Assembly (NCBI RefSeq): GCF_014646355.1
Contig: NZ_BMNH01000005.1
Location: 62,001-126,000 of the forward strand
Origin: Nonomuraea cavernae
GTDB lineage: Bacteria > Actinomycetota > Actinomycetes > Streptosporangiales > Streptosporangiaceae
Length of the DNA stretch: 64,000 nucleotides
Direction: 5' to 3'
Position numbers and translations under genes: made by a program. Within the stretch, counting starts at the first letter, position 1. Every line of letters starts with the position of its first letter. This document shows, one piece after another, positions 41,654 to 60,669 of this stretch. The notes below the pieces were generated by a model that made no database searches, had not been told where the DNA came from, and saw only the letters and a list, made by a program, of their open reading frames with translations.

Positions 41654-43114
41654 TTGAGCGACGGCGAAGGGCTGATGACCGTCGTCAGTTTCGATCCTGA
41701 CGCGTCCTGGCGGGTCAGCCCGCGCCTGCCCGGCTGGGTGCGCGCCTACCGTGCGCGGGCCGTGGTGATCGACTTCCTCGGCGGCGCCGCCGGGGCCAGC
41801 GCCGCCTTCTTCGGGCGGTTCGGTGAGATCACCCCCTACGTCACGCCGTACATCCTGGTGAGCGCGGCGATGCCGCTGGTGTGGGTGTGCGCGGTCGCGC
41901 TCAACCGGGCGTACGAGCCCCGCATGATCGGCATCGGCTCGGAGGAGTTCCGCCGCGTCCTGCAGTGCGGCGTCGCGCTGACCGCCGCGATGGCCATCGG
42001 CTCCTACCTGACCAAGACCGACATCGCCCGCGGCTACGTCGTGCTGGCCCTGCCGCTGGTGACACTCCTCACCCTGGTCTTCCGCTACGCGCTGCGCCGC
42101 TCGCTGCACCGGCGCAGGGCGCGCGGGGCCTGCATGCGCAAGGTGGTGGCGGTGGGCCACGCCGCCTCGATCGGCGAGCTCGTGGAGCTCTTCCGCAAGG
42201 AGCGTCACCACGGCATGGAGATCGTCGCGGCCTGCCTGCCGCGCGACGTGCCTGGCGACCTGGTCGCCGGCGTGCCGGTCGCCGGTGACTTCAGCGACGT
42301 GCCGATCGTCGTCGACCAGCTCGACGCCGACACCGTGGCCGTGCTCGCCTGCCCCGAGATGGACGGCGTGGCGCTGCGCCGGCTCGCGTGGCGGCTTGAG
42401 CGCACGCACACCGAGCTGGTCGTGGCCCCGGCCCTGATGGAGGTGGCGGGGCCGCGCACCACGATCAGGCCCGCCGCCGGGCTGCCCCTCCTGCATGTCG
42501 AGCACCCCGAGCTGGCCGGCGCCCGGCAACTGGTCAAGAACGTCTTCGACCGGCTGGTCGCCGCCGTGCTGCTGGTCGCGCTGGCCCCGCTGCTCCTCGT
42601 GATCGTCGCCGCGGTGCGCGCCACCAGCCCGGGGCCCGCGCTGTTCCGGCAGACCAGGGTGGGCAAGGACGGCCGGCCGTTCACGATCGTGAAGTTCCGC
42701 ACCATGCGACTCGGCGCCGAGCACCAGAAGTTCGCCCTGGTCAACGAAGGTGACGGCGTGCTGTTCAAGATCCGGGACGATCCGCGGGTGACGGCCTTCG
42801 GCGCGCTGCTGCGGCGCCACTCGCTCGACGAGCTGCCGCAGCTGATCAACGTGGTCTGCGGGCACATGTCCCTGGTCGGGCCGCGCCCGCCGCTGCCCGA
42901 GGAGGTCGCCCGCTACGGCGACGACGTGCGCCGGCGACTTCTGGTGCGGCCGGGGCTCACCGGGCTCTGGCAGGTCAGCGGCAGATCCGACCTGTCCTGG
43001 GAGGAATCCGTACGTCTCGACCTGCGTTACGTTGAAAACTGGTCCCTCACGCTCGACCTCCAGATCCTGTGGAAGACTTGGTCGGCTGTCGCCCGCGGGC
43101 AAGGAGCATATTGA
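41654..43114 (+). CDS. Polyprenyl-phosphate hexose-1-phosphate transferase (priming enzyme)
   Basis: Polyisoprenyl-phosphate sugar-1-P transferase of 486 aa that starts a polysaccharide repeat unit on undecaprenyl phosphate. It has an N-terminal four-helix membrane part, a central Rossmann-like region (KVVAVGHAASIGELVEL) and the C-terminal catalytic domain. That domain shows NVFDRLVAAVLLVALAPLLL, PALFRQTRVGKDGRPFTIVK, DELPQLINVVCGHMSLVGPR and RPGLTGLWQVSGRSDLSW. This is the WbaP/CpsE architecture. TTG start with GGAGG upstream. Its stop overlaps the cysQ start by one base. Confidence 0.93.
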   Translation: MSDGEGLMTVVSFDPDASWRVSPRLPGWVRAYRARAVVIDFLGGAAGASAAFFGRFGEITPYVTPYILVSAAMPLVWVCAVALNRAYEPRMIGIGSEEFRRVLQCGVALTAAMAIGSYLTKTDIARGYVVLALPLVTLLTLVFRYALRRSLHRRRARGACMRKVVAVGHAASIGELVELFRKERHHGMEIVAACLPRDVPGDLVAGVPVAGDFSDVPIVVDQLDADTVAVLACPEMDGVALRRLAWRLERTHTELVVAPALMEVAGPRTTIRPAAGLPLLHVEHPELAGARQLVKNVFDRLVAAVLLVALAPLLLVIVAAVRATSPGPALFRQTRVGKDGRPFTIVKFRTMRLGAEHQKFALVNEGDGVLFKIRDDPRVTAFGALLRRHSLDELPQLINVVCGHMSLVGPRPPLPEEVARYGDDVRRRLLVRPGLTGLWQVSGRSDLSWEESVRLDLRYVENWSLTLDLQILWKTWSAVARGQGAY

Positions 43115-43878
43115 TGATGATTCGCGACGATCACGCTCTCGCCGCCGACCTGGCGACAGAAGCGGGCGAGCTGTTGCTGGGCATCCGTGAGCGTGACGGC
43201 TTCGGCGACCCCTCCGCGCTGCGAGCCGAGGGCGACCGCGCCTCCCACGTCCTGCTGATGGAGTCACTCGCACGGCTGCGGCCGAGCGACAGTGTCCTGT
43301 CCGAGGAGGCCACCCGCGAGGAGCGGCTGGACCCGCGCAGGCTCGCCGCCTCCCGCGTGTGGATCGTCGACCCGCTCGACGGCACCCGCGAGTTCGCCGA
43401 GGAGGGCAGGGCCGACTGGGCCGTCCACGTGGCGCTCTGGGAGCAGGGCGGGCTGGCCGCCGGAGCGGTGGCGCTGCCCGCTCAGGGACGCGTCCTCACC
43501 ACGGCCGAGCCGCCCAAGTCGCCCACGTTCGAGGGCGGCCGGTTCCGCATCGCGGTGAGCCGTACCCGGCCGCCCGAGTTCGTGCAACGGCTCGCCGCTC
43601 TCGTGGGCGCCGACCTGGTGCCGATCGGGTCGGCGGGCGCCAAGATCTCGGCCGTGCTGACCGGCGAGGTCGAGGCGTACGTGCACGCCGGAGGCCAGTA
43701 CGAGTGGGATTCGGCCGCGCCCGTGGCCGTCGCGCAGGCGGCCGGGGCCCACGCCAGCCGGATCGACGGCTCGCCGCTGACCTACAACCAAGCAGACCCG
43801 TCCCTACCCGATATCCTGGTTTCCCTACCTGACTTGGCGTCAACCCTGCTCGCCGGGATTCGGGACCTGCACCGCTAG
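43114..43878 (+). CDS. cysQ: 3'(2'),5'-bisphosphate nucleotidase (PAP phosphatase)
   Basis: Inositol-monophosphatase-fold enzyme of 254 aa. Metal sites are LSEEATRE and the signature WIVDPLDGTREFAEEGRADW; a C-terminal motif reads GGQYEWDSAAPVAVAQAAG. It hydrolyses PAP, the by-product of sulfotransferases, to AMP. Position between the priming transferase and cysD, together with sulfotransferases nearby, supports this over inositol phosphatase. Starts at TGATG, coupled to the upstream gene; AAGGAGC precedes it. Confidence 0.92.
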   Translation: MMIRDDHALAADLATEAGELLLGIRERDGFGDPSALRAEGDRASHVLLMESLARLRPSDSVLSEEATREERLDPRRLAASRVWIVDPLDGTREFAEEGRADWAVHVALWEQGGLAAGAVALPAQGRVLTTAEPPKSPTFEGGRFRIAVSRTRPPEFVQRLAALVGADLVPIGSAGAKISAVLTGEVEAYVHAGGQYEWDSAAPVAVAQAAGAHASRIDGSPLTYNQADPSLPDILVSLPDLASTLLAGIRDLHR

Positions 43879-43897
43879 AACGCCGGAGGAAGCTCTC

Positions 43898-44812
43898 ATG
43901 CTCCAGCGCGACTACACGACGTCGCAGCTCGACGTGCTCGAAGCCGAAGCCATTCACATCATGCGCGAAGTGGCCGCGGAGTTCGAGCGTCCGTGTCTGC
44001 TCTTCTCCGGCGGCAAGGACTCCATCGTCATGCTGCGCATCGCGGAGAAGGCCTTCTGGCCGGCGCCCATCCCCTTCCCGCTGATGCACGTCGACACCGG
44101 GCACAACTTCGACGAGGTCATCGAGTTTCGCGACCGGCGCGTCCAGGAGCTGGGCGCGCGGCTGATCGTGGCGAGCGTGCAGGCCTCGATCGACGCCGGG
44201 CGGGTGGTCGAGGACACCGGACGACGCGCCTCGCGCAACCGGCTGCAGACCACCACGCTGCTCGACGCGATCGAGGACCACGAGTTCGACGCCGTCTTCG
44301 GCGGCGCCCGGCGCGACGAGGAGAAGGCCCGGGCCAAGGAGCGGGTGTTCTCCTTCCGTGACGACTTCGGCCAGTGGGACCCCAAGAACCAGCGCCCCGA
44401 GCTGTGGAACCTCTACAACGCCCGGATCCGCAAGGGCGAGCACATCCGGGTGTTCCCGCTGTCCAACTGGACCGAGCTCGACGTGTGGGACTACATCCGG
44501 CGCGAGGGCATCGAGATCCCGTCGATCTACTTCGCCCACACCCGCAAGGTCTTCGAGCGCGACGGCATGCTGCTGCCCGACGCCGACGTCGTCCACCGCG
44601 GCGACGACGAGCCGCTCATCGAGGCGGTGGTGCGCTATCGCACAGTGGGCGACATGACCTGCACCGGCGCCGTGCAGTCCACGGCCGCCACGGTGGAGGA
44701 GATCATCGAGGAGATCGCGGCCACCCGGATCACCGAGCGCGGGGCCACCAGGGCCGACGACCGCGCGTCGGAGGCCGCCATGGAGGATCGCAAGCGGGAA
44801 GGTTACTTCTAA
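43898..44812 (+). CDS. cysD: Sulfate adenylyltransferase subunit 2
   Basis: ATP sulfurylase catalytic subunit of 304 aa. The PP-loop ATP site is CLLFSGGKDSIVMLRIAEKA; other typical segments are FPLMHVDTGHNFDEVIEFRD, FGGARRDEEKARAKERVFSF and FPLSNWTELDVWDYI. It makes APS from sulfate and ATP with GTPase CysN. It follows cysQ by 19 bp and cysN follows by 4 bp. Confidence 0.97.
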   Translation: MLQRDYTTSQLDVLEAEAIHIMREVAAEFERPCLLFSGGKDSIVMLRIAEKAFWPAPIPFPLMHVDTGHNFDEVIEFRDRRVQELGARLIVASVQASIDAGRVVEDTGRRASRNRLQTTTLLDAIEDHEFDAVFGGARRDEEKARAKERVFSFRDDFGQWDPKNQRPELWNLYNARIRKGEHIRVFPLSNWTELDVWDYIRREGIEIPSIYFAHTRKVFERDGMLLPDADVVHRGDDEPLIEAVVRYRTVGDMTCTGAVQSTAATVEEIIEEIAATRITERGATRADDRASEAAMEDRKREGYF

Positions 44813-44816
44813 ACCG

Positions 44817-46079
44817 ATGGACATTCTGCGTTTCGCCACGGCGGGAAGTGTCGACGACGGCAAGTCCACGCTGATCGGGCGCCTGCTCTTCGACTCCAAG
44901 GCGATCTTCGAGGACCAGTTGGAGGCGGTCGAGCGCACCTCGCGCGACCGCGGCACCGAATACACCGACCTGTCGCTGCTCACCGACGGCCTGCGGGCCG
45001 AGCGTGAGCAGGGCATCACCATCGACGTGGCCTACCGCTACTTCGCCACCCCGCGCCGCAAGTTCATCATCGCCGACACGCCGGGGCACATCCAGTACAC
45101 CCGCAACATGGTCACCGGCGCCTCCACGGCCGACCTGGCGATCATCCTCATCGACGCGCGCAAGGGCGTTCTGGAGCAGTCGCGCCGCCACGCGTTCCTG
45201 ACCTCGCTGCTCCGGGTCCCGCACCTGGTGCTCGCGGTCAACAAGATGGACCTGGTCGACTACTCCCAGGAGCGCTTCGAGGAGATCCGCGAGGAGTTCA
45301 CCGCCTTCGCCTCCAAGCTCAACATCGGCGACCTGACGTTCATCCCGATCTCCGCGCTCAACGGCGACAACGTGGTGTCCCGCTCCGAGAGCATGCCGTG
45401 GTACAACGGCTCCTCGCTGCTCCACCACCTGGAGAACGTCCACATCGCCTCCGACCGCAACCTGGTCGACGTCCGCTTCCCGGTCCAGTACGTGATCCGC
45501 CCGCAGAAGGCGACCGATCACGCCTTCCACGACTACCGCGGCTACGCCGGCCAGGTCGCCGGCGGGGTGCTGAAGCCCGGCGACGAGGTCGTCCACCTCC
45601 CCTCGGGCCTGGCCACCAGGATCGCCTCGATCGACACCTTCGACGGGCCGGTGGAGGAGGCGTTCCCCCCGATGTCGGTCACCCTGCGCTTCGAGGACGA
45701 CATCGACATCTCCCGGGGCGACATGATCGCCCGCCCCAACAACCAGCCGCAGGTGGCCCAGGAGCTGGAGGCGATGGTCTGCTGGATGGGCGACAGCGTC
45801 AAACTGGCCCCGCGTTCCAAGCTCACCATCAAGCACACCACCCGTACGGCCCGCGCCCTGGTGCGTGACCTCCACTACCGCCTCGACGTCAACACGCTCC
45901 ACCGCGACGAGGAGGCCACCTCGCTGGGCCTCAACGAGATCGGCAGGGTGTCGCTCCGGGTCACCCAGCCGTTGTTCGTGGACGACTACGCGCGCAACCG
46001 GCTCACCGGCGGCTTCATCCTCGTCGACGAGGCCACGAACGGCACGGTCGGCGCCGGCATGATCACCGACGTCCGCTGA
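44817..46079 (+). CDS. cysN: Sulfate adenylyltransferase subunit 1 (GTPase)
   Basis: EF-Tu-like GTPase of 420 aa. G1 is TAGSVDDGKSTLIGRLLFDS, G3 is IADTPGHIQYTRNM and G4 is AVNKMDLVDYSQERF. It ends after the beta-barrel domains with no fused APS kinase, so it is not a CysNC; the kinase is a separate gene at 58692-59906. It couples GTP hydrolysis to APS formation by CysD. A strong terminator follows. Confidence 0.97.
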   Translation: MDILRFATAGSVDDGKSTLIGRLLFDSKAIFEDQLEAVERTSRDRGTEYTDLSLLTDGLRAEREQGITIDVAYRYFATPRRKFIIADTPGHIQYTRNMVTGASTADLAIILIDARKGVLEQSRRHAFLTSLLRVPHLVLAVNKMDLVDYSQERFEEIREEFTAFASKLNIGDLTFIPISALNGDNVVSRSESMPWYNGSSLLHHLENVHIASDRNLVDVRFPVQYVIRPQKATDHAFHDYRGYAGQVAGGVLKPGDEVVHLPSGLATRIASIDTFDGPVEEAFPPMSVTLRFEDDIDISRGDMIARPNNQPQVAQELEAMVCWMGDSVKLAPRSKLTIKHTTRTARALVRDLHYRLDVNTLHRDEEATSLGLNEIGRVSLRVTQPLFVDDYARNRLTGGFILVDEATNGTVGAGMITDVR

Positions 46080-46089
46080 CCCGATCACC

Positions 46090-46126
46090 CTGACGGCCCC
46101 CGCCTCGCCGGGGGCCGTCAGCGTTT
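46090..46126 (+). terminator. Rho-independent terminator after cysN
   Basis: Stem CTGACGGCCCCCG/CGGGGGCCGTCAG (13 bp, 46090-46121) with a six-base loop, followed by CGTTT. Confidence 0.85.
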
Positions 46127-46228: not shown

Positions 46229-47143
46229 GTGATCGACCCTTCGACCGCCACCCGGGTGGTCTTCCTGGGCGGCCTCGGCCGCAGTGGCAGCACCTTGCTC
46301 GAACGGCTGCTCGGTGAGCTGCCCGGAGTTGCTCCCCTCGGCGAGGTGGTCCATCTGTGGGCCCGTGGTGTGCTGGCCGGCGAGCCGTGCGGCTGCGGCG
46401 AGCCGTTGCCCGACTGCCCGTTCTGGCGAAAGGTCGGCGAGCGGGCCTTCGGAGGATGGACCGGCTCGCTGGCCGAGCGAATGCTGACCCTGCGGCAGCG
46501 GGTCGATCGCACCCATAGGGTGCTCCGCATCGGCCACCCCGACCTGGCCGAATACGTCCAGGCCTATCACCGCGTCTACGACGCCGCGGCCGAGGTGGCC
46601 GACGCCCGCCTGGTGATCGACTCCAGCAAGCACGCCTCCCTGGCCCACTGCCTGGCGGCGGACGGCTCCGACCCGCACGTGATCCAGGTGGTGCGCGACC
46701 CGCGGGCCGTGGCCCACTCGTGGCGCAGGACCGTGGCGCGGCCCGAGGACGGCCGCCCGATGGCCCGCTGGGGCCCCGGCCGCACCGCGCTCCACTGGAC
46801 GGCCCAGAACCTCGCCCTCGACCTGCTCGCCCGCCGCGGCGTCCAGGTGACCCGGGTTCGCTACGAGGACCTGCTCGCCGCCCCGCGCGCCACGCTGGCG
46901 TCCCTGGCGGAGCGCCTGGGCCTGCGGACCGAGCTGCCGTTCATCACCGACACGACCGCCCACCGCACCACGGCCCACCTCACCACCGCCCACACCGCCT
47001 CCGGCAACCCGATGCGCTTCACGGTGGGCCGGGTCGAGCTGGCCCTGGACGACACCTGGCGCTCCGCGCCCCGTCAGGGCCTGGTCACCGCGCTCACCTG
47101 GCCGCTCAGAGCCCGCTACGGCTATCGCGGGATCGCGGTGTGA
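46229..47143 (+). CDS. PAPS-dependent sulfotransferase (first of three)
   Basis: Sulfotransferase-fold protein of 304 aa. The 5'-phosphosulfate loop is FLGGLGRSGSTLLERLLG (about 12-29) and the 3'-phosphate motif VIQVVRDPRAVAHSW. A Cys-rich insert (CGCGEPLPDCPFW) is a feature of a bacterial subgroup. A Thr/His/Ala repeat (TTAHRTTAHLTTAHTA) sits before the C-terminus. GTG start after TGAGG. It has its own promoter region beyond the cysN terminator and is followed by two glycosyltransferases, so a sugar is the probable acceptor. Confidence 0.88.
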   Translation: MIDPSTATRVVFLGGLGRSGSTLLERLLGELPGVAPLGEVVHLWARGVLAGEPCGCGEPLPDCPFWRKVGERAFGGWTGSLAERMLTLRQRVDRTHRVLRIGHPDLAEYVQAYHRVYDAAAEVADARLVIDSSKHASLAHCLAADGSDPHVIQVVRDPRAVAHSWRRTVARPEDGRPMARWGPGRTALHWTAQNLALDLLARRGVQVTRVRYEDLLAAPRATLASLAERLGLRTELPFITDTTAHRTTAHLTTAHTASGNPMRFTVGRVELALDDTWRSAPRQGLVTALTWPLRARYGYRGIAV

Positions 47144-47166
47144 CTCCTCGATCAGGAAGAAAGACG

Positions 47167-49938: not shown

Positions 49939-49949
49939 GGTTGACGAGC

Positions 49950-49997
49950 TTAGCAAACGATCGTACGCTAACCAGCCAACGAACGATCGTACGCTAA
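49950..49997. promoter_or_regulatory. Two repeated operator sites between tetR and the metallo-hydrolase gene
   Basis: AACGATCGTACGCTAA occurs at 49956-49971 and 49982-49997. The first copy is part of a palindrome with TTAGC (49950-49954) and GCTAA arms around ACGATCGT. Spacing of 26 bp suggests two dimers on the same face. Confidence 0.7.
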
Positions 49998-50010
49998 AGG
50001 AGTCCGGAAG

Positions 50011-51729: not shown

Positions 51730-52982
51730 GCCGCCGACCACGAGCGGATCCGCAGGGCGGCAAGGCTGTGGCGACCGAAGGGCCGCAGGCCGTAGCGGTG
51801 GTGGAGCTGCCAGAGCGGCAGCAGGTTCTTCGCCAGCATGCCGCCCGACCAGCCCAGCGCCGCGCCGAGCGCGCCGTGCGCGGGGATGAGCGCGATGTCG
51901 AGCGCGATCGTGATGGCGGTCGCCGCGACGAGGTTGAGCAGGCTGGCCGTGGTGTGCCCGGCGGCCGTGAGCACCACGTCGACCGTCCCGCAGGCCGTCG
52001 CGACCATCATCGTGGTGGCCAGCACCAGGGCCACGGGGGCGGCGGAGCCGTACTCTGAGCCGAGCAGGCGCAGCAGCCACGGCGCCAGGGCGGCGTATCC
52101 GAGCCAGACCGGCCAGGTGAGCAGCACCAGCCAGACGGTCGTGGCCTGGTAGAGCTCGCGGGCGCGCGCCAGCTCGCCGTCGGCCAGCGCGCGCACCAGG
52201 CGTGGTTGCACGGCCTGCGCCAGGCCCTGGTTGGCGAGCTGGCCGACCACCTTGAAGCGGGTGGCCGCGGTGTAGACGGCGGCCTGCGCCGGGCCGCCGA
52301 GCAGGGCGACGATCACGATGTCCAGCCGCTGGAACACCGCCTGGATCGCGCCCGCCACCGACCGGGGAGCCGTGTAGCGCCACAGCTCGCGGCCGGTGCC
52401 CGCCAGCTGGCGGGTGCGCGGCACCCGGCCGCGCAGGCAGCCCGCGGCCAGCAGCAGCACGGGAAGGTACGGCAGCGCCCAGGCGACGGGCAGCCAGCCG
52501 GGGGCCGCGACGACGGCCGCGACGGACACGAGCAGGAGCTGGCCGGCGGGCAGCAGCATGCCGTCGAGCAGCACGGTGGGGCGCATGGCGCCGAACCCCC
52601 GGGTGGCGGCCAGCAGGATGTCGGCGGCGACCATCGCGGGCAGCGCCAGGGCGAGGAGGCCGAGGTGGGGGAGGAGGGCGACGGTCGCGACCATGGCCAC
52701 GGCCACACTCGGGACCAGGGCCGCCCGGATATATCCGGAAATGCCCTGATAATCGGACGACCTGGCTCGGGCGATGAAGTACACCAGACCGTTGCCCGCG
52801 TCGAGCTTGGCCACCCCGGCCGCCATCAGCGCCAGCGCCGTGGCGGTGAAGAAGGCACCGGCCTGCTCGGCGCTGAACGCCCGGGTGACCACCACGACCA
52901 GCAGGAACTGGGCCAGCGCGCTGGTGGTGGCCCCGGTCACCCCGGCGGCGCCGCCCCTCGCCAGCCCCGTCAGCGCCGCCAC
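51726..52982 (-). CDS. Wzx-like polysaccharide flippase (MOP superfamily)
   Basis: Membrane protein of 418 aa with about 12 helices, starting GGAAGVTGATTSALAQFLLV. Typical segments are GVAKLDAGNGLVYFIA, GLAQAVQPRLVRALADGE and VLTAAGHTTASLLNLVAA. It would move the lipid-linked repeat unit across the membrane. GTG start; the start overlaps the end of the upstream sulfotransferase by 13 bp and the stop overlaps the next sulfotransferase by 4. Confidence 0.88.
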   Translation of the reverse strand: MAALTGLARGGAAGVTGATTSALAQFLLVVVVTRAFSAEQAGAFFTATALALMAAGVAKLDAGNGLVYFIARARSSDYQGISGYIRAALVPSVAVAMVATVALLPHLGLLALALPAMVAADILLAATRGFGAMRPTVLLDGMLLPAGQLLLVSVAAVVAAPGWLPVAWALPYLPVLLLAAGCLRGRVPRTRQLAGTGRELWRYTAPRSVAGAIQAVFQRLDIVIVALLGGPAQAAVYTAATRFKVVGQLANQGLAQAVQPRLVRALADGELARARELYQATTVWLVLLTWPVWLGYAALAPWLLRLLGSEYGSAAPVALVLATTMMVATACGTVDVVLTAAGHTTASLLNLVAATAITIALDIALIPAHGALGAALGWSGGMLAKNLLPLWQLHHRYGLRPFGRHSLAALRIRSWSAA

Positions 52983-53824
52983 GACGGGTCACCGCCCAGC
53001 CAGCGGACCAGGTGCGTGTCGTACACCTCGAAATGGTCGCTCAGCGCCTGACGCACCGAGTCGGGCAGCGGCTTGGGCCGCGACCGCCCGTTGTGCCGCT
53101 CGAACTCCGGATAGCCCAGCCGCGGCATCCCCAGGAAGTCGAGCACCTCGTCGTAGACGTGCTCGGGCTCGGCGAAGAACCGGTGGCTGTCGAGGACCAG
53201 GATCCGCTCGCGGCCGAACAGCGGCTCCAGCCGGTCGAGCTGCTCGGCGTAGCGGCCGCGCGCCAGGTAGGCGTGGTGGCGGTGGGAGTGGTGGACGGAG
53301 TGGGGATGTGCCCGCAGGCTCTCCTCGGCCCCGGTCAGCCGCTGGGCCTCCAGCTCGACCGCGTACTCGAAGTGCGACTCGGTCTCGAACCCCCTGGCCA
53401 GCTCGTGGGCGTGGGCCGAGCAGGCCCGCTCGACCGGGTCGCGCACCAGCACGATCAGCTTCGCCCCGGGCAGGTCGGCGGCGATGCGCTCACCGGCCAG
53501 CGGATGGAACAGGTAGTAGGGCGACGACTCGAAGGCCAGCGGCCGGACACCGTACCGGCTGGTCAGCAGCTCGGCGCTCATCCGCAGCTGGAAGTGCGCC
53601 TGGTACCAGGACAGCGGACGGGAGTAGCCGACGTCGAAGTAGTGGACGCCCTTGTGCAGCACCGGCTTGAGCAGCAGCGGATGCTGCGCGAGCGCCCGGT
53701 AGAGCGAGGTGGTGCCGCACCGCTGCGCCCCTGCGATCAGGAACGACGGCAGGAGCCGCGAGGCCGACGTGATCCGTCCCGCCGCCCGGGAGATGGACAG
53801 CACCGACTGCTTCAGGGCCTTCAC
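52970..53824 (-). CDS. Sulfotransferase, heparan-sulfate-type (third of three)
   Basis: Protein of 284 aa. The 5'-phosphosulfate loop is FLIAGAQRCGTTSLYRAL (about 28-45), followed by LHKGVHYFDVGYSRPLSWYQ and the 3'-phosphate motif KLIVLVRDPVERACSAHAHE. The C-terminal part, FFAEPEHVYDEVLDFLG, is as in NDST/HS-sulfotransferases. These modify carbohydrates, consistent with a polysaccharide substrate. GTG start overlaps the upstream gene stop (GTGA). Confidence 0.92.
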   Translation of the reverse strand: MKALKQSVLSISRAAGRITSASRLLPSFLIAGAQRCGTTSLYRALAQHPLLLKPVLHKGVHYFDVGYSRPLSWYQAHFQLRMSAELLTSRYGVRPLAFESSPYYLFHPLAGERIAADLPGAKLIVLVRDPVERACSAHAHELARGFETESHFEYAVELEAQRLTGAEESLRAHPHSVHHSHRHHAYLARGRYAEQLDRLEPLFGRERILVLDSHRFFAEPEHVYDEVLDFLGMPRLGYPEFERHNGRSRPKPLPDSVRQALSDHFEVYDTHLVRWLGGDPSWRR

Positions 53825-54720
53825 GTGAGCAACTCCTGGTGGTCGAGGAGCGGGTTGAGCCAGACGTCGGGGGAGCCGAGCGGGGAGTGGCCGTCGGCGG
53901 CGTGCCGGTCGGCCAGCGCGATGAGGTAGTGCAGCGCGGTCAGCCGGGCCTGCGCGGCCGACAGCCCGAACGGCGCGAGCACGCCGACGGACTGCGCGAG
54001 GCAGGCGCGCGCGGCCGTCGCCGGGCTCATCCGGCGCAGCGCGCGCTGGAAGAGGTGGTGCAGGGCGTCGAACCCGCAGGGCACGCCGACCGCGTAGCGC
54101 TCCCAGTCCCAGACGAGCAACCGGCCGTCGGCGGAGGGGGAGATGTTCCACGGAGACAGGTCGCCGTGCCAGGCCGCGCCCGCCGGGCCGCCGGTCGCGG
54201 CGATCTCCCTGATCGCGTCGGTGAGCAACGCCGCGGGGACCCGGCCCCGTCTGACCGGCAGTGGAGACAGCGCCAGCACCTCCAGGTCGCGCCAGCGGCC
54301 GTGGTGCAGCACCGTCGGCACGACGACGGTCTTGAACGCCTGGTCGGCCATCCTCCGCAATGCGGCGGCCTCGTGTGCGACCAGCTCGCGGGCCCGCGCG
54401 GTGTCGCCGATCTTCACGTACGCCAGGCGCTCGCCGCCCGACCAGGCCTCCAGGATCGGTTTGCGGTTGGCCCGCCGGGCGGGGCGTACGTGGAGCACGG
54501 TCTCGATCGGGGCGCCCAGGACGTCGCTCAGGTGGGCGGCGATCGACCCGTCGGCGGCAAGTACGAGCTTGCGGCCGGGATGCCACCACCGGCGGGGCGC
54601 CAGGCGGCGCGGCAGCAGCCGGTGCGGCAGCACGCTGTAGGCCCGGGGCGAGCCGGAGCCGGGATGGAGCAGCCGCACGGTCTCGTCGAGATAGCGCAGC
54701 CGGATCTTCGCGTCGTTCAC
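53821..54720 (-). CDS. APH-fold phosphotransferase
   Basis: Protein of 299 aa with the aminoglycoside/choline kinase fold: RLAYVKIGDTARARELVAHE (Lys and Glu of the N lobe), AAWHGDLSPWNI (catalytic Asp) and LLVWDWERYAVG (metal Asp). It could phosphorylate a sugar or other small molecule of the polysaccharide pathway; being inside the operon it is unlikely to be drug resistance. GTG start with GGAGGAACC upstream, overlapping the polymerase stop by 4 bases. Confidence 0.82.
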   Translation of the reverse strand: MNDAKIRLRYLDETVRLLHPGSGSPRAYSVLPHRLLPRRLAPRRWWHPGRKLVLAADGSIAAHLSDVLGAPIETVLHVRPARRANRKPILEAWSGGERLAYVKIGDTARARELVAHEAAALRRMADQAFKTVVVPTVLHHGRWRDLEVLALSPLPVRRGRVPAALLTDAIREIAATGGPAGAAWHGDLSPWNISPSADGRLLVWDWERYAVGVPCGFDALHHLFQRALRRMSPATAARACLAQSVGVLAPFGLSAAQARLTALHYLIALADRHAADGHSPLGSPDVWLNPLLDHQELLT

Positions 54721-55985
54721 GGACGGTTCCTCCACAGAAGGGCGAAGGAGATGAGGTAGAGGATGAGTGGCGTGACGAGCCCGTCGTAGATGAACATGTA
54801 GAGCAGCACGAGGGCCATCACCAGCACTCCCGCGAGCCCGACCGGGCTGCGGTCGCTCCAGTGACGGCGGATCGCGCCGACGAAGAACGCCACGTACAGG
54901 GCCGCTCCCGCGAAGCCCTGGGTGATCATCAGCAGCCAGAGCTGCCCGTCGCTGCCCAGCGGCGGGTGGCCGCAGCCGCCGCACCACGCCGTCTTGCCCG
55001 TGGTGATCGTGCGGTGGTTGCCCATCGCGTTGCGGGTGTTGCCGTAGCCGATCAGGGGGGAGTGGCCGGCGGCGCTGATCGTCGCCGACACGGTGAAGGC
55101 CCTGATGTCATTGGAGTGGGGGTTGTCCAGCCGCTGGGCGACCAGCGCGGCGAGCGGGCTGAACGCGAACACCAGCGCTCCCGTCACGGCCGCCGCGCAC
55201 ACCGCGAGCCTCGTCCGGCCGCCGACCCGGACGACCAGGTAGAGGGCGCCCAGCCCGAGCCCGATCCACAGCCCCCGGTTGAGGGAGTAGACGATCGGGA
55301 TGGCGGCCAGGCCCATGAGCACGACCGCCACGGCCCTGCGCTGCCGCCCCCCGTGGACCCACCAGCCGACCACGAACCAGATCAGCAGCACCGACACGTT
55401 GCTGCCCCAGGCGTTGGCCCATTCGAACGGCGCCTCCGGGCGGGGGGAGGCGTAGCCGAGCACCTTCTGCGTCTGCGCGGCGGTGGGGTGGATCAGGTTC
55501 TGGACGAACGAGTTGCCGCCGATCCAGTCGGGCAGCGCCAGCTCCAGCGGCGAGGTGAACGAGAAGCTCGGGAAGAACACCCCGAGCAGCCCGCCCGCCA
55601 CCGTCGTCACGAACAGCACTCCGAGCATCCGCACCAGCCGCAGCTGGGGCAGCTCCCGCTCGCTCAGGTTGCCCAGGTAGAGGACCATGACCAGCATCGA
55701 CACGTAGAGCGCGAGTCGCATCAGGTAGCCGATGACGCGGCCCGCCCCGAACTCGCCGTAGGTGTCGGGCGGCATCTCCGACAGCATCAGCGCGCTCAGC
55801 CCGTAGCCGGCCAGCAGCAGCAGCCAGAGCCCGAACCCACGCGGCACCCTGATCGGTCTGCGCCGCCAGAGGATGACCGCCATCGGCACCGCCAGCACGA
55901 TCACCGCGAGCCCGCCGAACCCCAGGCCCCACCACACGGGATAGCCCACGAGCAGCGCGGCGATGGGCCAGGCGGGCCCTTTCAC
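54717..55985 (-). CDS. O-antigen polymerase/ligase (Wzy-like) membrane protein
   Basis: Protein of 422 aa with about ten helices and a large extracytoplasmic loop, the plan of Wzy/WaaL proteins. Indicators are VYSLNRGLWIGLGLGALYLVV, a conserved loop-end segment in this superfamily, SPLIGYGNTRN and IYDGLVTPLILYLISFALL. It would join repeat units outside the membrane. GTG start overlaps the upstream stop by 4 bases. Confidence 0.85.
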   Translation of the reverse strand: MKGPAWPIAALLVGYPVWWGLGFGGLAVIVLAVPMAVILWRRRPIRVPRGFGLWLLLLAGYGLSALMLSEMPPDTYGEFGAGRVIGYLMRLALYVSMLVMVLYLGNLSERELPQLRLVRMLGVLFVTTVAGGLLGVFFPSFSFTSPLELALPDWIGGNSFVQNLIHPTAAQTQKVLGYASPRPEAPFEWANAWGSNVSVLLIWFVVGWWVHGGRQRRAVAVVLMGLAAIPIVYSLNRGLWIGLGLGALYLVVRVGGRTRLAVCAAAVTGALVFAFSPLAALVAQRLDNPHSNDIRAFTVSATISAAGHSPLIGYGNTRNAMGNHRTITTGKTAWCGGCGHPPLGSDGQLWLLMITQGFAGAALYVAFFVGAIRRHWSDRSPVGLAGVLVMALVLLYMFIYDGLVTPLILYLISFALLWRNRP

Positions 55986-57292
55986 GTCAGCGTGCCCGGC
56001 GGACGCGGCATCGCCTGCATGGGGGAGGTCTCGGGGTTGAGGCCGGGATCGAGCTCGGCGCCGGCCACGAGCTTGCCGAGGGAGGAGTGGGAGCGCGTGG
56101 TCACGGTCGGGGGGAACACCGGCTCGCGGTCGGCGGTGAGGACGCCGATGATCGGCACGTGCTGCCTGGCCAGCGGGCGGACCGCCGCCCTGACGTCCGC
56201 CGAGGTGGCGCGGCCGAGCCCGACGACCAGCACCGCGGCGTCGGCCCTGGCCAGGTCGCCCACGTCGGAGCCGTCGAGCACGGTCAGCAGCGTGGCGTCG
56301 GCGAGCGGCGCGGCCACGGCCGCGGCCGCGAATCCGATGGGCACCGCCCTGACCAGGAGCCGTTTGCCCTGGCAGCCGGCGATCACGGTGGAGGCCAGGT
56401 CGTGCAGCGCGCCGTGGTCGGGGCGGTGCGGCAGGTCGGCGATGACCGGCAGCCCGGTCAGCCGCTCGACGTCGGCGGCGGTGCGCAGCAGGGTGTCGAA
56501 CCGGTCGCGCAGGGCGGCCCCCGCGGCGCCGAGAAGGAGCCCCAGCATCAGCCCGGTGCCGAGGTAGAGCGGCAGGCTGGGGGAGCTGGGGCGCTCGGGC
56601 GGGACGGCCTGGCTGAGGATCGAGCCCGGGGACACGGTGAGCGTCTTGAGGGCGTCGTACTTGGTGGTCAGGTTGTAGGCCTGCCGGTTGAGCACGCTCT
56701 GCCGGTGCTGGGCGAGGGTGTGCTCGGCGGTGCCGGCGGGCAGCGTGGGGAGCTCTCGGACCACGGTGTCGAGGTCGGTGTTGACCTGCTTGAGCTTGGC
56801 CAGCATGGCCTTCTGCTGGAGCGTGATGGCCGCCTGTGCGCTCTCGGCGCGAACCGCCAGGTAGGCGTCGGCATAGGCCTGCGACTGGGCCGCCGCGGTG
56901 GCCGGGTCGGAGGCCGTCACGGAGATCGACAGCACCGCCGAGTTGGGCGGCACGGTCACCTCGACCGGCTCGGGCTCGGTGGTGCGCAGCAGCTCGGCCG
57001 CCTTGGCGGTCACCACGGCCGACTGCGCGACCTGTGCCTCGGTGTCGAGGTTGAGCGGCTCACGCTGCCGGGCGGTCACCTGGTTGCTCTGCTCCTGCGC
57101 GCCGACCGCCGTGACCAGGACCTGCGTGGTCGCGGTGTAGGCGGACGGCACGACGCACAGCAGGACCAGGCCCGCCAGGCCGCCGGCCAGGACGAAGCCC
57201 AGGAAGTGCTGCCAGCGCCTGCGCAGCAGGGCGAAGTGCTCGCCGAGACCGGTGCCGGAGCGGTGGGCCGGGAAGTCCGGCGACAGGCTCAT
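55982..57292 (-). CDS. Wzz-like chain-length protein with degenerate BY-kinase domain
   Basis: Protein of 436 aa. The first helix (about 31-49) follows HFALLRRRWQHFLG, a coiled-coil extracytoplasmic part follows, and the second helix (about 241-261) comes after PPERPSSPSL, the Pro-rich motif of Wzz. The cytoplasmic part looks like a tyrosine-autokinase fold (LPVIADLPH, ADAAVLVVGL, VPIIGVLTADR), but the Walker A is replaced by RAVPIGFAAAAV, with no GKS/T. So it should set chain length but not phosphorylate. First gene of the six-gene operon. Confidence 0.87.
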   Translation of the reverse strand: MSLSPDFPAHRSGTGLGEHFALLRRRWQHFLGFVLAGGLAGLVLLCVVPSAYTATTQVLVTAVGAQEQSNQVTARQREPLNLDTEAQVAQSAVVTAKAAELLRTTEPEPVEVTVPPNSAVLSISVTASDPATAAAQSQAYADAYLAVRAESAQAAITLQQKAMLAKLKQVNTDLDTVVRELPTLPAGTAEHTLAQHRQSVLNRQAYNLTTKYDALKTLTVSPGSILSQAVPPERPSSPSLPLYLGTGLMLGLLLGAAGAALRDRFDTLLRTAADVERLTGLPVIADLPHRPDHGALHDLASTVIAGCQGKRLLVRAVPIGFAAAAVAAPLADATLLTVLDGSDVGDLARADAAVLVVGLGRATSADVRAAVRPLARQHVPIIGVLTADREPVFPPTVTTRSHSSLGKLVAGAELDPGLNPETSPMQAMPRPPGTLT

Positions 57293-57583: not shown

Positions 57584-58681
57584 ATGCTAAAAGACATTTC
57601 GTTTATGTCCAACAAAAAGGGCATGATTCTGCTGGTCGGGTCGGTAGGGCTGGTCGTGAGCCTCGTCATGGGGCTGACCGGGTGTTCGGGCCCGGCGGAC
57701 ACCCGTGAGGGGACGGCGTCCCCGGTCGACCCCAAGCCCAGGAAGGGCAAGGCCGCCTGTACGGTCACCGACAAGCTCATCCCGTCCTGCGGCGCCTGGT
57801 GGGGCATGGCGCCCGAGATCTTCACCGGCGTGCCCGTGGACCAGGCCATCCGCAGCGCCGAGCAGCGCATGGGCACCCACGCCGACGTGGTGCACGTCTA
57901 TCACCGCACCAGCGAGCTGTTCCCCACCGACCGGGAGATCCGGCTGGCCCGCGACCCCGCCCGCCCGAGGCTGCTGCTGGTCAACTGGAAGCCGTCGTTC
58001 GACCACACCTGGGCGGAGATCGCCGGGGGAGCTCTCGACCACCGGATCGACCGGCTGGCCGCCTACATCCGGCGTACGTTCCCCGAGCGGTTCTTCCTCA
58101 CCATCCACCACGAGCCCGAGAACGACGTCCGCGCCGGTCAGGGCTCGGGCATGCAGGCGGCCGACTACGCGGCCATGTACCGCCACGTCGTGCTCCGGCT
58201 GCGCGAGAAGGGCGTGAAGAACGCGGTCACGGTCATGACCTACATGGGCGCCCCCAACTGGGCGGCCAAGGCCTGGTTCGAGGAGCTCTACCCGGGCGAC
58301 GACGTGGTCGACTGGGTGGCGATGGACCCCTACGCCGACAGTGACGTGCGCGACTTCGCCGGCCTGGTCAACAAGACCCGGCCCGACTTCCCGCGCTGGC
58401 CCGGCTTCTACCGGTGGATGCAGCTGCGCTTCCCCGGCAAGCCGGTCATGGTGGCCGAGTGGGGCGTGTTCGAGGACGCCGGCTCGCCCAAGGGCGCCTT
58501 CTACCACTCCGTACGCGCCCAGATCCGCAACTATCCGCAGATCAAGGCCCTGATCTACTTCGACTCACCCCAGGCGCCGCGCGGCAACACCAGCTTCGAC
58601 ACCGAGCCGATGACCGGCAGGGCGTTCACCACGCTGGCGCGCGACCCGCACTTCCGCTCGACCCGGGTGCCGCTGCCCTGA
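57584..58681 (+). CDS. Lipoprotein glycoside hydrolase, GH26-like
   Basis: Exported lipoprotein of 365 aa: basic start, helix MILLVGSVGLVVSLVMG, lipobox LTGC with Cys34. The TIM-barrel catalytic region shows FLTIHHEPENDV with a likely acid/base Glu177 and PVMVAEWGVFED with a likely nucleophile Glu292, the pattern of GH26 mannanase-type enzymes. It would cut or edit the polysaccharide made by the operon on the other side of its promoter. The ATG at 57584 has the best ribosome-site spacing; GTG 57578 is in frame. Confidence 0.8.
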   Translation: MLKDISFMSNKKGMILLVGSVGLVVSLVMGLTGCSGPADTREGTASPVDPKPRKGKAACTVTDKLIPSCGAWWGMAPEIFTGVPVDQAIRSAEQRMGTHADVVHVYHRTSELFPTDREIRLARDPARPRLLLVNWKPSFDHTWAEIAGGALDHRIDRLAAYIRRTFPERFFLTIHHEPENDVRAGQGSGMQAADYAAMYRHVVLRLREKGVKNAVTVMTYMGAPNWAAKAWFEELYPGDDVVDWVAMDPYADSDVRDFAGLVNKTRPDFPRWPGFYRWMQLRFPGKPVMVAEWGVFEDAGSPKGAFYHSVRAQIRNYPQIKALIYFDSPQAPRGNTSFDTEPMTGRAFTTLARDPHFRSTRVPLP

Positions 58682-58691
58682 CCCCCGCCGG

Positions 58692-59906
58692 TCAGCGCAC
58701 CCAGCCGCCGGACCGCAGCGCGCCCAGCACCTGGGAGACCGCCGCCTCGATCGACAGGTGGGTGGTGTCGATGACCAGGTCGGCGTCGTCCGGCTCCTCG
58801 TAGGGGTCGGAGACGCCGGTGAACTCAGGGATGAGCCCGGCCCGGGCCTTGGCGTACAGGCCCTTGCGGTCGCGGCGCTCACACTCCTCCAGCGGGGTGG
58901 AGACGTGCACGAGCAGGAAGTCGGCGCCGACCGACTCGACCATCTCGCGCACCTCCGCGCGGGTGGCCTCGTAGGGGGCGATGGGCGCGCAGATGGCCAG
59001 GCCGCCGTGACGGGCAGCCTCGGCGGCCACGAAGCCGATGCGCCGGATGTTGAGGTCGCGGTCGGCCTTGGAGAACGTCAGGCCCTTGGACAGCAGGGCG
59101 CGCACCACGTCGCCGTCGAGGTAGGTGACCGTGCGGGTGCCGAGCTCCAGCAGCGCGTCACGCAGGCCGCGGGCGACCGTCGACTTGCCCGAGCCGGACA
59201 GCCCGGTGAAGAACACCACGAGACCGCGCCGGTGCGGGGGGCCGGGTATGCGCACCGGCTCGGGCCCGGCCAGGTGCTCGGTCGCGCCGTAGGCGGTGGC
59301 GACGTGCTCGCGCAGCTCCAGGTCGATCTCGGGCTCCTCGCGCGGCGCGAGCGGCACCGGGACGACGAGGGTGCCCTCGGGCAGGTGGTCCCTGGCCCGC
59401 AGCGCCGCTCTGACCACCGACGGGCCCTGCTCGCCGTACGAGAGGGGGAGCAGCACGATCGCCGCGTCGAGCTCCTTGGCGGTGGCGATGATCTCGGTGA
59501 GGTCGTCGAGCGGCCCGCGCATCGTGACGACCAGCGCCGGGCGCCCGCCGAGGGCCTCGCGCACCTGGGACGGGGTGCGGTGCAGCCGGGCGAACGGGCC
59601 GTGCTCCGGCGCGCCGAGGCCGCGGACCGGACCGGCGGTCAGGCCGTCGGGCTCGTGCTCGGTCACGGTGAGAACGGCGAGCGGCACGCCCTCGGGGTCG
59701 AGCAGCGTGACCTCGTCGCCGGGGGAGACGTCGGCGGGCAGACGCAGCGTGACCGGCGCCGGCCAGGGCGTGCCGTCGGCGAGGATGCCGCGCTCGGCGA
59801 CCGTGTGCAGGTCGTCGTGGCCCAGGAACCCGGTCAGGGGCTGGAACGCTCCGGACAGCAGCAGCTCGAGATCGGCCAGTTCGTGCGCGTCGGGGGTGTG
59901 CTCCAC
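58692..59906 (-). CDS. cysC: APS kinase with degenerate ATP-sulfurylase-like N-terminus
   Basis: Protein of 404 aa. Residues 1-220 resemble the PUA-like and catalytic parts of Sat-type ATP sulfurylase (LELLLSGAFQPLTGFLGHDD, WPAPVTLRLPADV), but the catalytic RNPxHxxH element is not found. Residues 228-404 are a complete APS kinase: GLSGSGKST at 235-243, TVTYLDGDVVRALLSKGLTF, NIRRIGFVAAEAARHGG and KGLYAKARAGLIPEFTGVSD. It makes PAPS from the APS supplied by CysDN. GTG start. It converges on the hydrolase gene. Confidence 0.92.
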   Translation of the reverse strand: MEHTPDAHELADLELLLSGAFQPLTGFLGHDDLHTVAERGILADGTPWPAPVTLRLPADVSPGDEVTLLDPEGVPLAVLTVTEHEPDGLTAGPVRGLGAPEHGPFARLHRTPSQVREALGGRPALVVTMRGPLDDLTEIIATAKELDAAIVLLPLSYGEQGPSVVRAALRARDHLPEGTLVVPVPLAPREEPEIDLELREHVATAYGATEHLAGPEPVRIPGPPHRRGLVVFFTGLSGSGKSTVARGLRDALLELGTRTVTYLDGDVVRALLSKGLTFSKADRDLNIRRIGFVAAEAARHGGLAICAPIAPYEATRAEVREMVESVGADFLLVHVSTPLEECERRDRKGLYAKARAGLIPEFTGVSDPYEEPDDADLVIDTTHLSIEAAVSQVLGALRSGGWVR

Positions 59907-59952
59907 GTTCGAATCCCAAGTGCTCCGGTTAGATGACCGTCATAGTGTGTCA

Positions 59953-60669
59953 CTAGATGAGACGTGCGAAGTGGTTCTGCGGCTTCCTGATGACCATGGT
60001 GATCTCGTCGTGTGACGAGGGATAACGGCCGCGGCTCAGCCTGTCGGCCAGCGTGACGGCCGTGCGGCCGAGCCGGCCCAGGGCGGGGCCGCTGGTCCTG
60101 GTCTCGTCGTCGGTGATCAGCAGGCCGCGGCTGAGGCAGAAGGCGTGGATGCCGTCGTACGAGGTCAGTGGCTCGTAGACGGCGGGCAGCGGGCCGGGTG
60201 TGCCGTCCGCCACCAGGTGGCGCCAGAGCGCGCGCCGCAGCCACCCCGGCGTGAGGCGGTCGCACAGGCCGTAGGCCGACCTGCGGTCGCGCATCCGCAG
60301 CAGCACCAGGCCGCCGGGCCGCAACGCCTGGAGCAGCCGGTCGAAGACCAGCTCCGCGTGGTGGATGCGTTCGAGCAGGAACGACAGCTGGATCACGTCC
60401 ACCGACCGGGGCGGCACCGGCGCGGACCGCAGGTCGCCCAGCGACCAGGTGGCCAGGTCGGCCCGCTCCTCGACGACGCTCCTGATCACCGGCAGGTCCT
60501 CGTCGACCCCGGTGAGCCGGGTCTCGATCCGGTCGAGGGCCAGCGGCTCGTCGTGGGCGCATCCGGCGATCAGCAGGTCGAGCCGCCTGCCCAGCTGACC
60601 GGCCCACTGCTCGCGGATCCGCTGATCGAAGAGGCCGCCTTCCGGCGCGACCGACCGCACTTCAGACAT
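59953..60669 (-). CDS. Class I SAM-dependent methyltransferase-like protein
   Basis: Protein of 238 aa with a Rossmann methyltransferase plan. RRLDLLIAGCAHDEPLALDR holds a weak motif I, SVDVIQLSFLLERIHHAELVF is motif IV, and LLQALRPGGLVLLRMRDRRS is motif VI. It starts MSEVRSVAPEGGLFDQRIRE and ends ITMVIRKPQ. It lies upstream of cysC on the same strand (46-bp gap) and may methylate a sugar of the polymer; that is inferred from position only. Confidence 0.75.
   Translation of the reverse strand: MSEVRSVAPEGGLFDQRIREQWAGQLGRRLDLLIAGCAHDEPLALDRIETRLTGVDEDLPVIRSVVEERADLATWSLGDLRSAPVPPRSVDVIQLSFLLERIHHAELVFDRLLQALRPGGLVLLRMRDRRSAYGLCDRLTPGWLRRALWRHLVADGTPGPLPAVYEPLTSYDGIHAFCLSRGLLITDDETRTSGPALGRLGRTAVTLADRLSRGRYPSSHDEITMVIRKPQNHFARLI

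What the first reader, a model, noticed from the sequence alone, without database searches (positions are those of the whole stretch)
41654..60669. A sulfated surface-polysaccharide system with its own PAPS supply
Seen: a priming hexose-1-P transferase, two glycosyltransferases, a Wzx-like flippase, a Wzy-like polymerase, a Wzz-like regulator, three sulfotransferases, cysD, cysN, an APS kinase, cysQ and a GH26-like lipoprotein in about 19 kb. Known: CysDN plus APS kinase make PAPS; sulfotransferases use it and leave PAP, which CysQ removes. No APS/PAPS reductase or sulfite reductase is present, so the PAPS is probably for sulfation. Inference: the locus makes a Wzy-type, multiply sulfated glycan on the cell surface. 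I know of sulfolipids and sulfated antibiotics in actinobacteria but not of a locus like this.
Basis: partly seen in the sequence, partly recalled or inferred. Interest (0 to 1): 0.88.

Follow-up and report, generated by a model that had tools for sequence, protein, structure and literature searches.

The report
Sulfated-glycan locus tied to PAPS supply
This soil actinomycete carries a cluster of genes predicted to build, sulfate and export a surface polysaccharide next to its only recognised enzyme for making activated sulfate (PAPS); it resembles the wps-1 cluster that a 2026 paper showed is needed for normal sporangia in Actinoplanes, although sulfate in the polymer has still to be shown.

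Summary
The reported genes are really there. The locus also holds a kinase-like gene and a methyltransferase; a TetR/MBL pair inside it has no counterpart in 56 fetched relatives. Best reading: a Wzx/Wzy pathway whose lipid-linked repeat units are sulfated in the cytoplasm by three sulfotransferases, one of heparan-sulfate type. Domains and core gene order match Actinoplanes missouriensis wps-1 plus AMIS_7390 (PMC13390465): a new member of a known kind.

Two points sharpen it. The locus APS kinase is the only convincing one in this genome and in 14 of 19 genomes of the genus, about 3-4 kb from wzy in all 19. CysH looks like an APS reductase, so PAPS should serve sulfation only; this would explain the unexplained AMIS_7390 phenotype. 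But "own" supply is too strong: 10 of 19 have a single CysD, at this locus in 7 of the 10, so CysDN is probably shared with cysteine synthesis.

The cluster is kept across Streptosporangiaceae; the Wzy-kinase-sulfotransferase core recurs elsewhere in the class (50 of 63 Wzy places). Two genomes have Wzx/Wzy beside APS kinase without a recognised sulfotransferase. Glycan structure and sulfation are unproven.

The parts
41654..43114 (+). Polyprenyl-phosphate hexose-1-phosphate transferase (initiating enzyme)
   Evidence: PF02397 223 bits, TIGR03025 409 bits above cut-off
43114..43878 (+). CysQ-like 3'-phosphoadenosine-5'-phosphate phosphatase; start overlaps the end of the gene before it
   Evidence: PF00459 113 bits; TIGR01331 110 bits, below cut-off
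43898..44812 (+). CysD, ATP sulfurylase small subunit
   Evidence: TIGR02039 457 bits above cut-off; in 28 of 56 fetched loci and in 10 of 10 genomes re-examined
44817..46079 (+). CysN, ATP sulfurylase GTPase subunit, no fused kinase
   Evidence: TIGR02034 581 bits above cut-off
46229..47143 (+). Sulfotransferase ST1 (perhaps the counterpart of WpsB; orthology not tested)
   Evidence: PF13469 57 bits; N-terminal phosphate-binding motif in 37 of 37 and RDPR-like motif in 33 of 37 relatives; best solved relatives 26-35 bits
47167..48198 (+). GT2 glycosyltransferase (as WpsA)
   Evidence: PF00535 58 bits
48510..49277 (+). WecG/TagA/CpsF (GT26) glycosyltransferase (as WpsC); start uncertain, low-complexity DNA upstream
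   Evidence: PF03808 190 bits; sequence
49345..49938 (-). TetR-family regulator; insertion, not part of the conserved set
   Evidence: PF16925 104 bits; 0 of 56 loci
50011..50805 (+). MBL-fold hydrolase; insertion, not part of the conserved set
   Evidence: PF12706 61 bits; 0 of 56 loci
50833..51729 (-). Sulfotransferase ST2
   Evidence: PF13469 40 bits; RSGT[ST] and RDP motifs in 51 of 51 relatives; no solved relative better than E 0.012
51726..52982 (-). Wzx-type flippase (as WpsG)
   Evidence: PF01554 30 bits above cut-off; 8 hydrophobic segments
52970..53824 (-). Sulfotransferase ST3, heparan-sulfate 3-OST/NDST type (as WpsH)
   Evidence: PF00685 44 bits; profile to 3-OST-3 E 2e-17; model closest to 3RNL, NDST1, 3-OST; Glu of ESSPYY aligned to Glu of EKTPSYF
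53821..54720 (-). Kinase-like protein (as WpsI), HGDxxPWN and WDWE motifs
   Evidence: No Pfam family; both motifs in 54 of 56 relatives; model nearest to WbdD, then a lanthipeptide synthetase, fructosamine-3-kinase and APH(3'), modest TM
54717..55985 (-). Wzy-type polymerase (as WpsJ)
   Evidence: PF04932 25.6 bits, below cut-off; 8 hydrophobic segments; 56 named loci
55982..57292 (-). Wzz-type chain-length regulator (as WpsK)
   Evidence: PF02706 27 bits above cut-off
57605..58681 (+). GH26-type glycoside hydrolase, lipobox-like LTGC (as WpsE)
   Evidence: PF02156 22 bits; profile to endoglucanase H 99.7 bits over 280 positions; acid motifs in 52 and 51 of 53
58692..59906 (-). APS kinase with degenerate ATP-sulfurylase-like N-terminal domain (as AMIS_7390)
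   Evidence: PF01583 189 bits; P-loop in 52 of 52, RNPxHxxH in 0 of 52 relatives; sole convincing APS kinase of the genome
59953..60669 (-). SAM-dependent methyltransferase (possible counterpart of WpsF; orthology not tested)
   Evidence: PF13489 28 bits, just above cut-off; 49 of 56 loci
39160..41563 (+). Left flank: prs, ribosomal L25, pth
   Evidence: PF13793, PF01386, PF01195; same flank in L054 and L087
60748..64000 (+). Right flank: mfd (runs off the window; start not fixed)
   Evidence: UvrB_inter, CarD_TRCF_RID and TRCF domains; in 48 of 56 loci

Best explanation
The locus is a wps-1-type cluster for a sulfated Wzx/Wzy-dependent exopolysaccharide, joined to the cell's PAPS-making genes. 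Proposed steps: the PGT puts hexose-1-phosphate on undecaprenyl phosphate; the GT26 and GT2 enzymes extend the repeat unit (shown: domains; inferred: order and sugars). CysDN makes APS and the APS kinase makes PAPS (shown: families and motifs). Three sulfotransferases without hydrophobic segments sulfate the lipid-linked repeat unit in the cytoplasm, one of them with a heparan-sulfate-type fold (shown: motifs, predicted fold; inferred: acceptor and place). CysQ removes the product PAP. A kinase-like enzyme and a methyltransferase may add further groups (inferred). Wzx exports, Wzy polymerises, Wzz sets the length, and a surface lipoprotein of GH26 type trims the polymer (inferred). Because this is the only APS kinase in most of the genus and CysH looks like an APS reductase, PAPS is predicted to be used only for sulfation, while APS from the same CysDN can also feed cysteine. 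By analogy with Actinoplanes the polymer probably belongs to the spore or sheath coat.
For: Domains and motifs. The minus-strand genes Wzz-Wzy-Kin-ST3-Wzx-ST2 overlap end to start (ORF coordinates; starts as set). Order Wzz-Wzy-Kin-ST3-Wzx in 47 of 56 named loci; ST1-3, CysD, CysN, Wzx, Wzy and APS kinase all within one fetched locus in 25 of 56. Ten loci that seemed to lack the cys half although over 5 kb of flank was left have PGT-CysQ-CysD-CysN-ST1-GT2 after all in 10 of 10 genomes, on a contig of the same length as the Wzy contig in 9 of 10. In a 296-genome class sample, 50 of 63 Wzy places have kinase and ST3 within 12 kb. ST3 model: separate heparan-sulfate sulfotransferase domains TM 0.63-0.73 by target length, SULT-type and other entries about 0.3-0.5. 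APS kinase within 15 kb of wzy in 19 of 19 genomes of the genus (this one included), the only one found in 14. Genetics of the published counterpart: all wps-1 genes but wpsD, and AMIS_7390, are needed for normal sporangia or spore release; the wpsB mutant's sporangia look normal but release about tenfold fewer spores (PMC13390465).
Against: No chemistry: no sulfate has been shown in this polymer or in that of Actinoplanes (the paper says verification is awaited). ST1 and ST2 have no close solved relative and could act on another acceptor. The Wzy hit is below the Pfam cut-off. 11 of 63 Wzy places have neither kinase nor ST3 nearby; at two of them (G102, G183), near APS kinase and mfd, no sulfotransferase was recognised in the ORFs scanned. 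Wzx was not detected inside two loci, L019 and L059. The APS-reductase call for CysH is narrow: TIGR02055 235.7 against 235.3, while the PAPS-reductase-named NF002537 also passes its cut-off (260 against 154) and the closest solved chain, 7LHR, is deposited as PAPS reductase. AMIS_7390 is not activated with wps-1 on day 3. I had no A. missouriensis sequence, so the link to wps-1 rests on domains and order.
Confidence: 0.82

Rival explanations
1. The cys genes are the cell's ordinary sulfate-activation genes and sit beside a glycan cluster by historical accident; the sulfotransferases merely draw on the common pool.
For: 10 of 19 genomes of the genus have one CysD, 7 of them at this locus, so this CysDN very probably also feeds cysteine; CysDN is much more conserved than the glycan genes (88-98% identity in the loci where found, 81-82% in L054); G183 keeps CysQ-CysD-CysN and APS kinase around Wzx/Wzy without ST3 or kinase; 8 of 12 sulfotransferase-family matches of this genome lie elsewhere.
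Against: An APS kinase is not needed for cysteine if CysH is an APS reductase (narrow call), yet it is kept within 4 kb of wzy in 19 of 19 genomes; CysQ and ST1 share the block with CysDN; deletion of the Actinoplanes counterpart AMIS_7390 has a severe sporangium defect.
Confidence: 0.2
2. The sulfated glycan is not a free polysaccharide but is attached to the wall, a secondary polymer or a surface protein.
For: A WecG/TagA/CpsF-type transferase (190 bits) is common in wall-polymer and capsule pathways (recalled).
Against: Wzz-Wzy-Wzx is the standard set of an exopolysaccharide or capsule; mutants of the counterpart have squashed sporangia, read by its authors as a matrix defect (PMC13390465). 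No ligase was looked for outside the window.
Confidence: 0.2
3. The sulfotransferases modify a secreted small molecule or a lipid, as in sulfated glycopeptides or mycobacterial sulfolipids.
For: ST1's best solved relatives are polyketide/olefin-synthase, tyrosylprotein and curacin sulfotransferases, at 26-35 bits.
Against: No small-molecule biosynthetic enzyme recognised among the locus genes scanned; the set stays with Wzx/Wzy over nine named genera; ST3 is of heparan-sulfate type.
Confidence: 0.06

Closest known systems
wps-1 cluster plus AMIS_7390 of Actinoplanes missouriensis (PMC13390465; seen: outline and abstract, sections on wps-1 and single-gene deletions, the discussion, and passages)
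   Same: GT2, GT26, GH26, methyltransferase, Wzx, heparan-sulfate-type sulfotransferase, kinase-like, Wzy, Wzz; core order wpsG-H-I-J-K = Wzx-ST-kinase-Wzy-Wzz, next to a Sat/APS-kinase family gene.
   Different: Here a third sulfotransferase, CysDN, CysQ and the initiating PGT are in the locus, no DUF4262 gene was recognised, and a TetR/MBL pair is inserted. The paper does not connect AMIS_7390 to PAPS for the sulfotransferases and calls its phenotype unexpected. Sequence homology was not tested.
Sulfated capsule locus of Vibrio sp. KMM 8419 (PMC11641403; passages seen)
   Same: cysC, cysN, cysD and sulfotransferases inside a polysaccharide cluster; the authors call this combination a hallmark of sulfated polysaccharide synthesis.
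   Different: Export there is by an ABC transporter and Wzy is absent; the cys genes are second copies, whereas here the APS kinase is the only one recognised.
Synechan locus of Synechocystis (PMC8205485; search listing and start of abstract only)
   Same: Bacterial sulfated exopolysaccharide.
   Different: Cyanobacterial; its genes were not compared here.
Heparan sulfate 3-O-sulfotransferases and NDST sulfotransferase domain
   Same: Predicted fold and aligned Glu of ST3.
   Different: 19-24% identity (28% to the bacterial 3RNL); acceptor unknown.
Bifunctional SAT/APS kinase (3CR8, 2GKS)
   Same: PUA-like N-terminal part and APS kinase domain.
   Different: RNPxHxxH in 0 of 52 relatives and part of the sulfurylase domain is missing from the alignment, so only APS kinase activity is expected.

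Membership tests
wps-1-type cluster | Contiguous Wzx - heparan-sulfate-type sulfotransferase - kinase-like - Wzy - Wzz | tested here: met
   Window 51726-57292 and 47 of 56 named loci
wps-1-type cluster | GT2, second sulfotransferase and GT26 together | tested here: met
   ST1-GT2-GT26 at 46229-49277
wps-1-type cluster | GH26 gene, methyltransferase gene and adjacent Sat/APS-kinase family gene | tested here: met
   57605-60669
wps-1-type cluster | Sequence homology to WpsA-K of A. missouriensis | not tested
wps-1-type cluster | Required for sporangium/spore coat | not testable with these tools
   Needs gene deletion; shown only for A. missouriensis (PMC13390465)
Wzx/Wzy-dependent pathway | Initiating PGT, glycosyltransferases, Wzx, Wzy, Wzz | tested here: met
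   All present; Wzy by a sub-threshold Pfam hit, hydrophobic segments and conservation
Sulfated-polysaccharide cluster (PAPS genes plus sulfotransferases in a polysaccharide locus) | PAPS synthesis and sulfotransferase genes within the cluster | tested here: met
Sulfated-polysaccharide cluster (PAPS genes plus sulfotransferases in a polysaccharide locus) | Sulfate ester in the polymer | not testable with these tools
   Needs chemistry
Dedicated (duplicate) PAPS supply | Cluster cys genes are extra copies | tested here: not met
   APS kinase single in 14 of 19, CysD single in 10 of 19 genomes of the genus; in this genome CysDN has a second copy, the APS kinase has not
Bifunctional ATP sulfurylase/APS kinase | ATP sulfurylase motif RNPxHxxH (motif recalled) | tested here: not met
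   0 of 52 relatives and not in the window protein; NF004040 343 bits against cut-off 669
APS reductase (CysH on C16) | Cys-Cys and CxxC for a 4Fe-4S cluster (recalled); TIGR02055 | tested here: met
   LCCYLRK and GCAPCT; 235.7 bits against cut-off 235.3, TIGR02057 PAPS reductase 170 below 254, but NF002537 (PAPS reductase by name) also passes

The most novel reading that the evidence does not exclude
In this order of actinomycetes PAPS exists only for sulfation, and its synthesis is held next to one conserved glycan locus: the cell makes a heparinoid-like spore or sheath polymer, sulfated at fixed sites on every repeat unit before export and perhaps also phosphorylated by a WbdD-like kinase, as a family-wide structural component also in genera without sporangia.
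Probability: 0.22. Interest if true: 0.75.

Novelty: new member of a known kind. Interest (0 to 1): 0.52.

Why it matters
Sulfated polysaccharides are described as uncommon in bacteria and were only recently predicted for an actinomycete (PMC13390465). The locus shows that the prediction extends over a whole family, including spore-chain formers such as Nonomuraea (spore form recalled), and gives a simple, testable account of an unexplained result in the Actinoplanes study: AMIS_7390 would be the PAPS-making step. It also offers bacterial sulfotransferases of heparan-sulfate type with a defined genetic context, useful for making sulfated glycans without animal tissue.

Tried and rejected
Small-molecule sulfation was put at 6%. 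A bifunctional ATP sulfurylase/APS kinase was considered for 58692-59906 and rejected. A dedicated duplicate PAPS supply was rejected after counting copies in 19 genomes of the genus. The TetR and MBL genes were set aside (0 of 56 loci). The apparent loss of the cys half in ten loci (nine Microbispora, one Planotetraspora) turned out to be a matter of flank length. The kinase-like gene has no Pfam family, a sequence match of only E 0.024 to WbdD and fold matches of TM at most 0.50, so its substrate is left open. An attempt to reach A. missouriensis through the family of G183 searched 22 genomes that already had handles.

Literature: seven searches. (Streptosporangiaceae or actinobacteria with sulfotransferase terms) held no paper; (Nonomuraea, sulfated, exopolysaccharide) listed four papers on other subjects by title, not opened; some searches listed the papers named. 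Two papers were opened (PMC13390465, PMC11641403), neither in full.

Limits and dropped rows: I used the 65 ST3 rows of 136 bits or more and left out the weaker rows, whose listing was itself cut; all 63 Wzy and 55 kinase rows; and 49 APS-kinase rows that I picked (G046's, on another contig than its Wzy, was left out). Searches scored only the best few candidates per genome, and at most 86 per genome, so copy numbers of APS kinase in relatives are lower bounds; all 107 candidates of this genome were scored. Profiles used relatives within 0.7-1.4 of the window protein's length. The 56 named loci were found with Wzy peptide patterns and so are not a census of the family.


Full report
What is there. 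The window carries, between prs-L25-pth (39160-41563) and mfd (from about 60.75 kb, plus strand), a plus-strand block PGT-CysQ-CysD-CysN-ST1-GT2-GT26, a minus-strand block Wzz-Wzy-kinase-ST3-Wzx-ST2 whose genes overlap end to start, a GH26-type lipoprotein, an APS kinase and a methyltransferase. A TetR/MBL pair at 49345-50805 lies inside the locus but matches nothing in 56 relatives.

Host. The nearest named relatives are Nonomuraea species (Wzy up to 88%, Mfd up to 93% identical) and other Streptosporangiaceae, so the window is from a Nonomuraea or close kin (inference). The genome is 8.1 Mb in 81 contigs, 99.6% complete.

Conservation. A scan of named genomes with Wzy gave 56 loci. Of 56, the kinase is in 56, ST3 54, Wzz 53, GH26 53, APS kinase 52, ST2 51, Wzx 50, methyltransferase 49, mfd 48, GT26 40, GT2 38, ST1 37, CysN 31, CysD 28, CysQ 22, PGT 11; many misses lie at a contig or flank end. 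Order Wzz-Wzy-kinase-ST3-Wzx is identical in 47 of 56; the other nine lack one or more of the five, in L019 and L059 Wzx within the locus. Ten loci had no cys half although more than 5 kb of flank was left; in all ten genomes it was found, as PGT-CysQ-CysD-CysN-ST1-GT2, on a contig of the same length as the Wzy contig in 9 of 10.

Wider spread. In 296 genomes of the class, 58 carry 63 Wzy places; 50 of 63 have kinase and ST3 within 12 kb, one kinase only, one ST3 only, 11 neither; APS kinase lies within 16 kb in 17. The eleven score 126-221 bits, against up to 823. Two of them lie near mfd: G183 has PGT, CysQ, CysD, CysN, GT2, Wzy, Wzx, Wzz and APS kinase; G102 has GT2, Wzy, Wzx, Wzz and APS kinase, with no CysDN in the stretch fetched. 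Both carry GT11, GDP-mannose-dehydratase-type and epimerase genes, and no sulfotransferase family among the ORFs scanned (14 of each); one protein of about 268 aa in each has no Pfam family and could be anything.

PAPS supply. The locus enzyme is the only convincing APS kinase of the genome; the other hit is a 47-position stretch of 21.6 bits, just over Pfam's 21.1 cut-off, probably a generic P-loop (inference). CysH on C16, next to a sulfite/nitrite-reductase-family gene (PF01077), has LCCYLRK and GCAPCT. It passes TIGR02055 (APS reductase) by 235.7 to 235.3 and fails TIGR02057 (PAPS reductase, 170 against 254), but also passes NF002537, named PAPS reductase, and its closest solved chain 7LHR is deposited under that name. 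That Cys-Cys/CxxC marks APS reductases is recalled knowledge. A second cysDN stands on C1. Over 19 genomes of the genus, this one included, an APS kinase is within 4 kb of wzy in 19 and is the only one in 14; CysD is single in 10 (7 at the locus, 3 on another contig), double in 8 and not found in one. So APS made here very probably feeds both cysteine and PAPS, while PAPS probably has no use but sulfation. Of 12 sulfotransferase-family matches in this genome, 4 belong to the three locus genes and 8, about 7 genes, lie on C1, C8, C11, C15 and C19; the PAPS is thus not for this glycan alone.

The sulfotransferases. Motifs are kept: ST1 37 of 37 and 33 of 37, ST2 51 of 51 twice, ST3 54 of 54 and 52 of 54; none has a hydrophobic segment, so sulfation should precede export (inference). 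ST3 is the best defined: profile matches to heparan-sulfate 3-O-sulfotransferase 3 (E 2e-17) and NDST (8e-16), a model with mean pLDDT 77.5 nearest to the bacterial 3RNL, then NDST1 and 3-OST, and a Glu (in ES[SA]PYYxFHP, 51 of 54) aligned to the Glu of EKTPSYF, the catalytic base by recall. ST1 and ST2 have no informative solved relative.

Other parts. The APS kinase carries a PUA-like, degenerate sulfurylase domain: RNPxHxxH in 0 of 52 relatives, RGP[LI]D in 50. The GH26 protein matches endoglucanase H over 280 profile positions and keeps its two acid motifs in 52 and 51 of 53. The kinase-like protein has HGDxxPWN and WDWE in 54 of 56 and a model (pLDDT 79.8) nearest to WbdD, with fructosamine-3-kinase and APH(3') further down, at modest TM.

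Comparison with the literature. PMC13390465 describes wpsA-K and AMIS_7390 in Actinoplanes missouriensis with the same domains and core order, shows that all but wpsD are needed for normal sporangia or spore release, predicts a sulfated polysaccharide and calls the AMIS_7390 defect unexpected. The present data suggest why: its counterpart is the PAPS-making kinase. The paper states that bacterial sulfated polysaccharides are known only from cyanobacteria; PMC11641403 (passages) reports one from Vibrio, with second copies of cysC, cysN and cysD in the cluster, an ABC transporter and no Wzy. The kind is therefore known; this is a new member with the PAPS genes in the locus.

Verdict. Real, conserved, most likely a sulfated Wzx/Wzy polysaccharide system (82%). 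New member of a known kind; interest 0.52, mainly for the family-wide conservation and the single APS kinase.

Noticed in passing
G000 C8:205000-219000 (L080): A second, paralogous cluster in the same genome: GH26-like, RCC1-repeat protein, Wzx, Wzz, GT2, second Wzz-like, ST3-like sulfotransferase, kinase-like, Wzy.
   Followed up: partly
window 49345-50805: TetR-family regulator and MBL-fold hydrolase inserted between the two halves of the locus, with no match in 56 relatives.
   Followed up: no
window 48300-48510: Low-complexity repeat just before the GT26 gene, making its start uncertain.
   Followed up: no
L076-L079 (G102, G183): Wzx/Wzy cluster near mfd with APS kinase (in G183 also CysQ and CysDN) but GT11, GDP-mannose-dehydratase-type and epimerase genes and no recognised sulfotransferase: what the PAPS serves there is unclear.
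   Followed up: partly
L054: A Streptosporangiales MAG with the set in one orientation and prs-L25-pth-PGT-CysQ-CysD-CysN contiguous, its GH26 only 29% identical.
   Followed up: no
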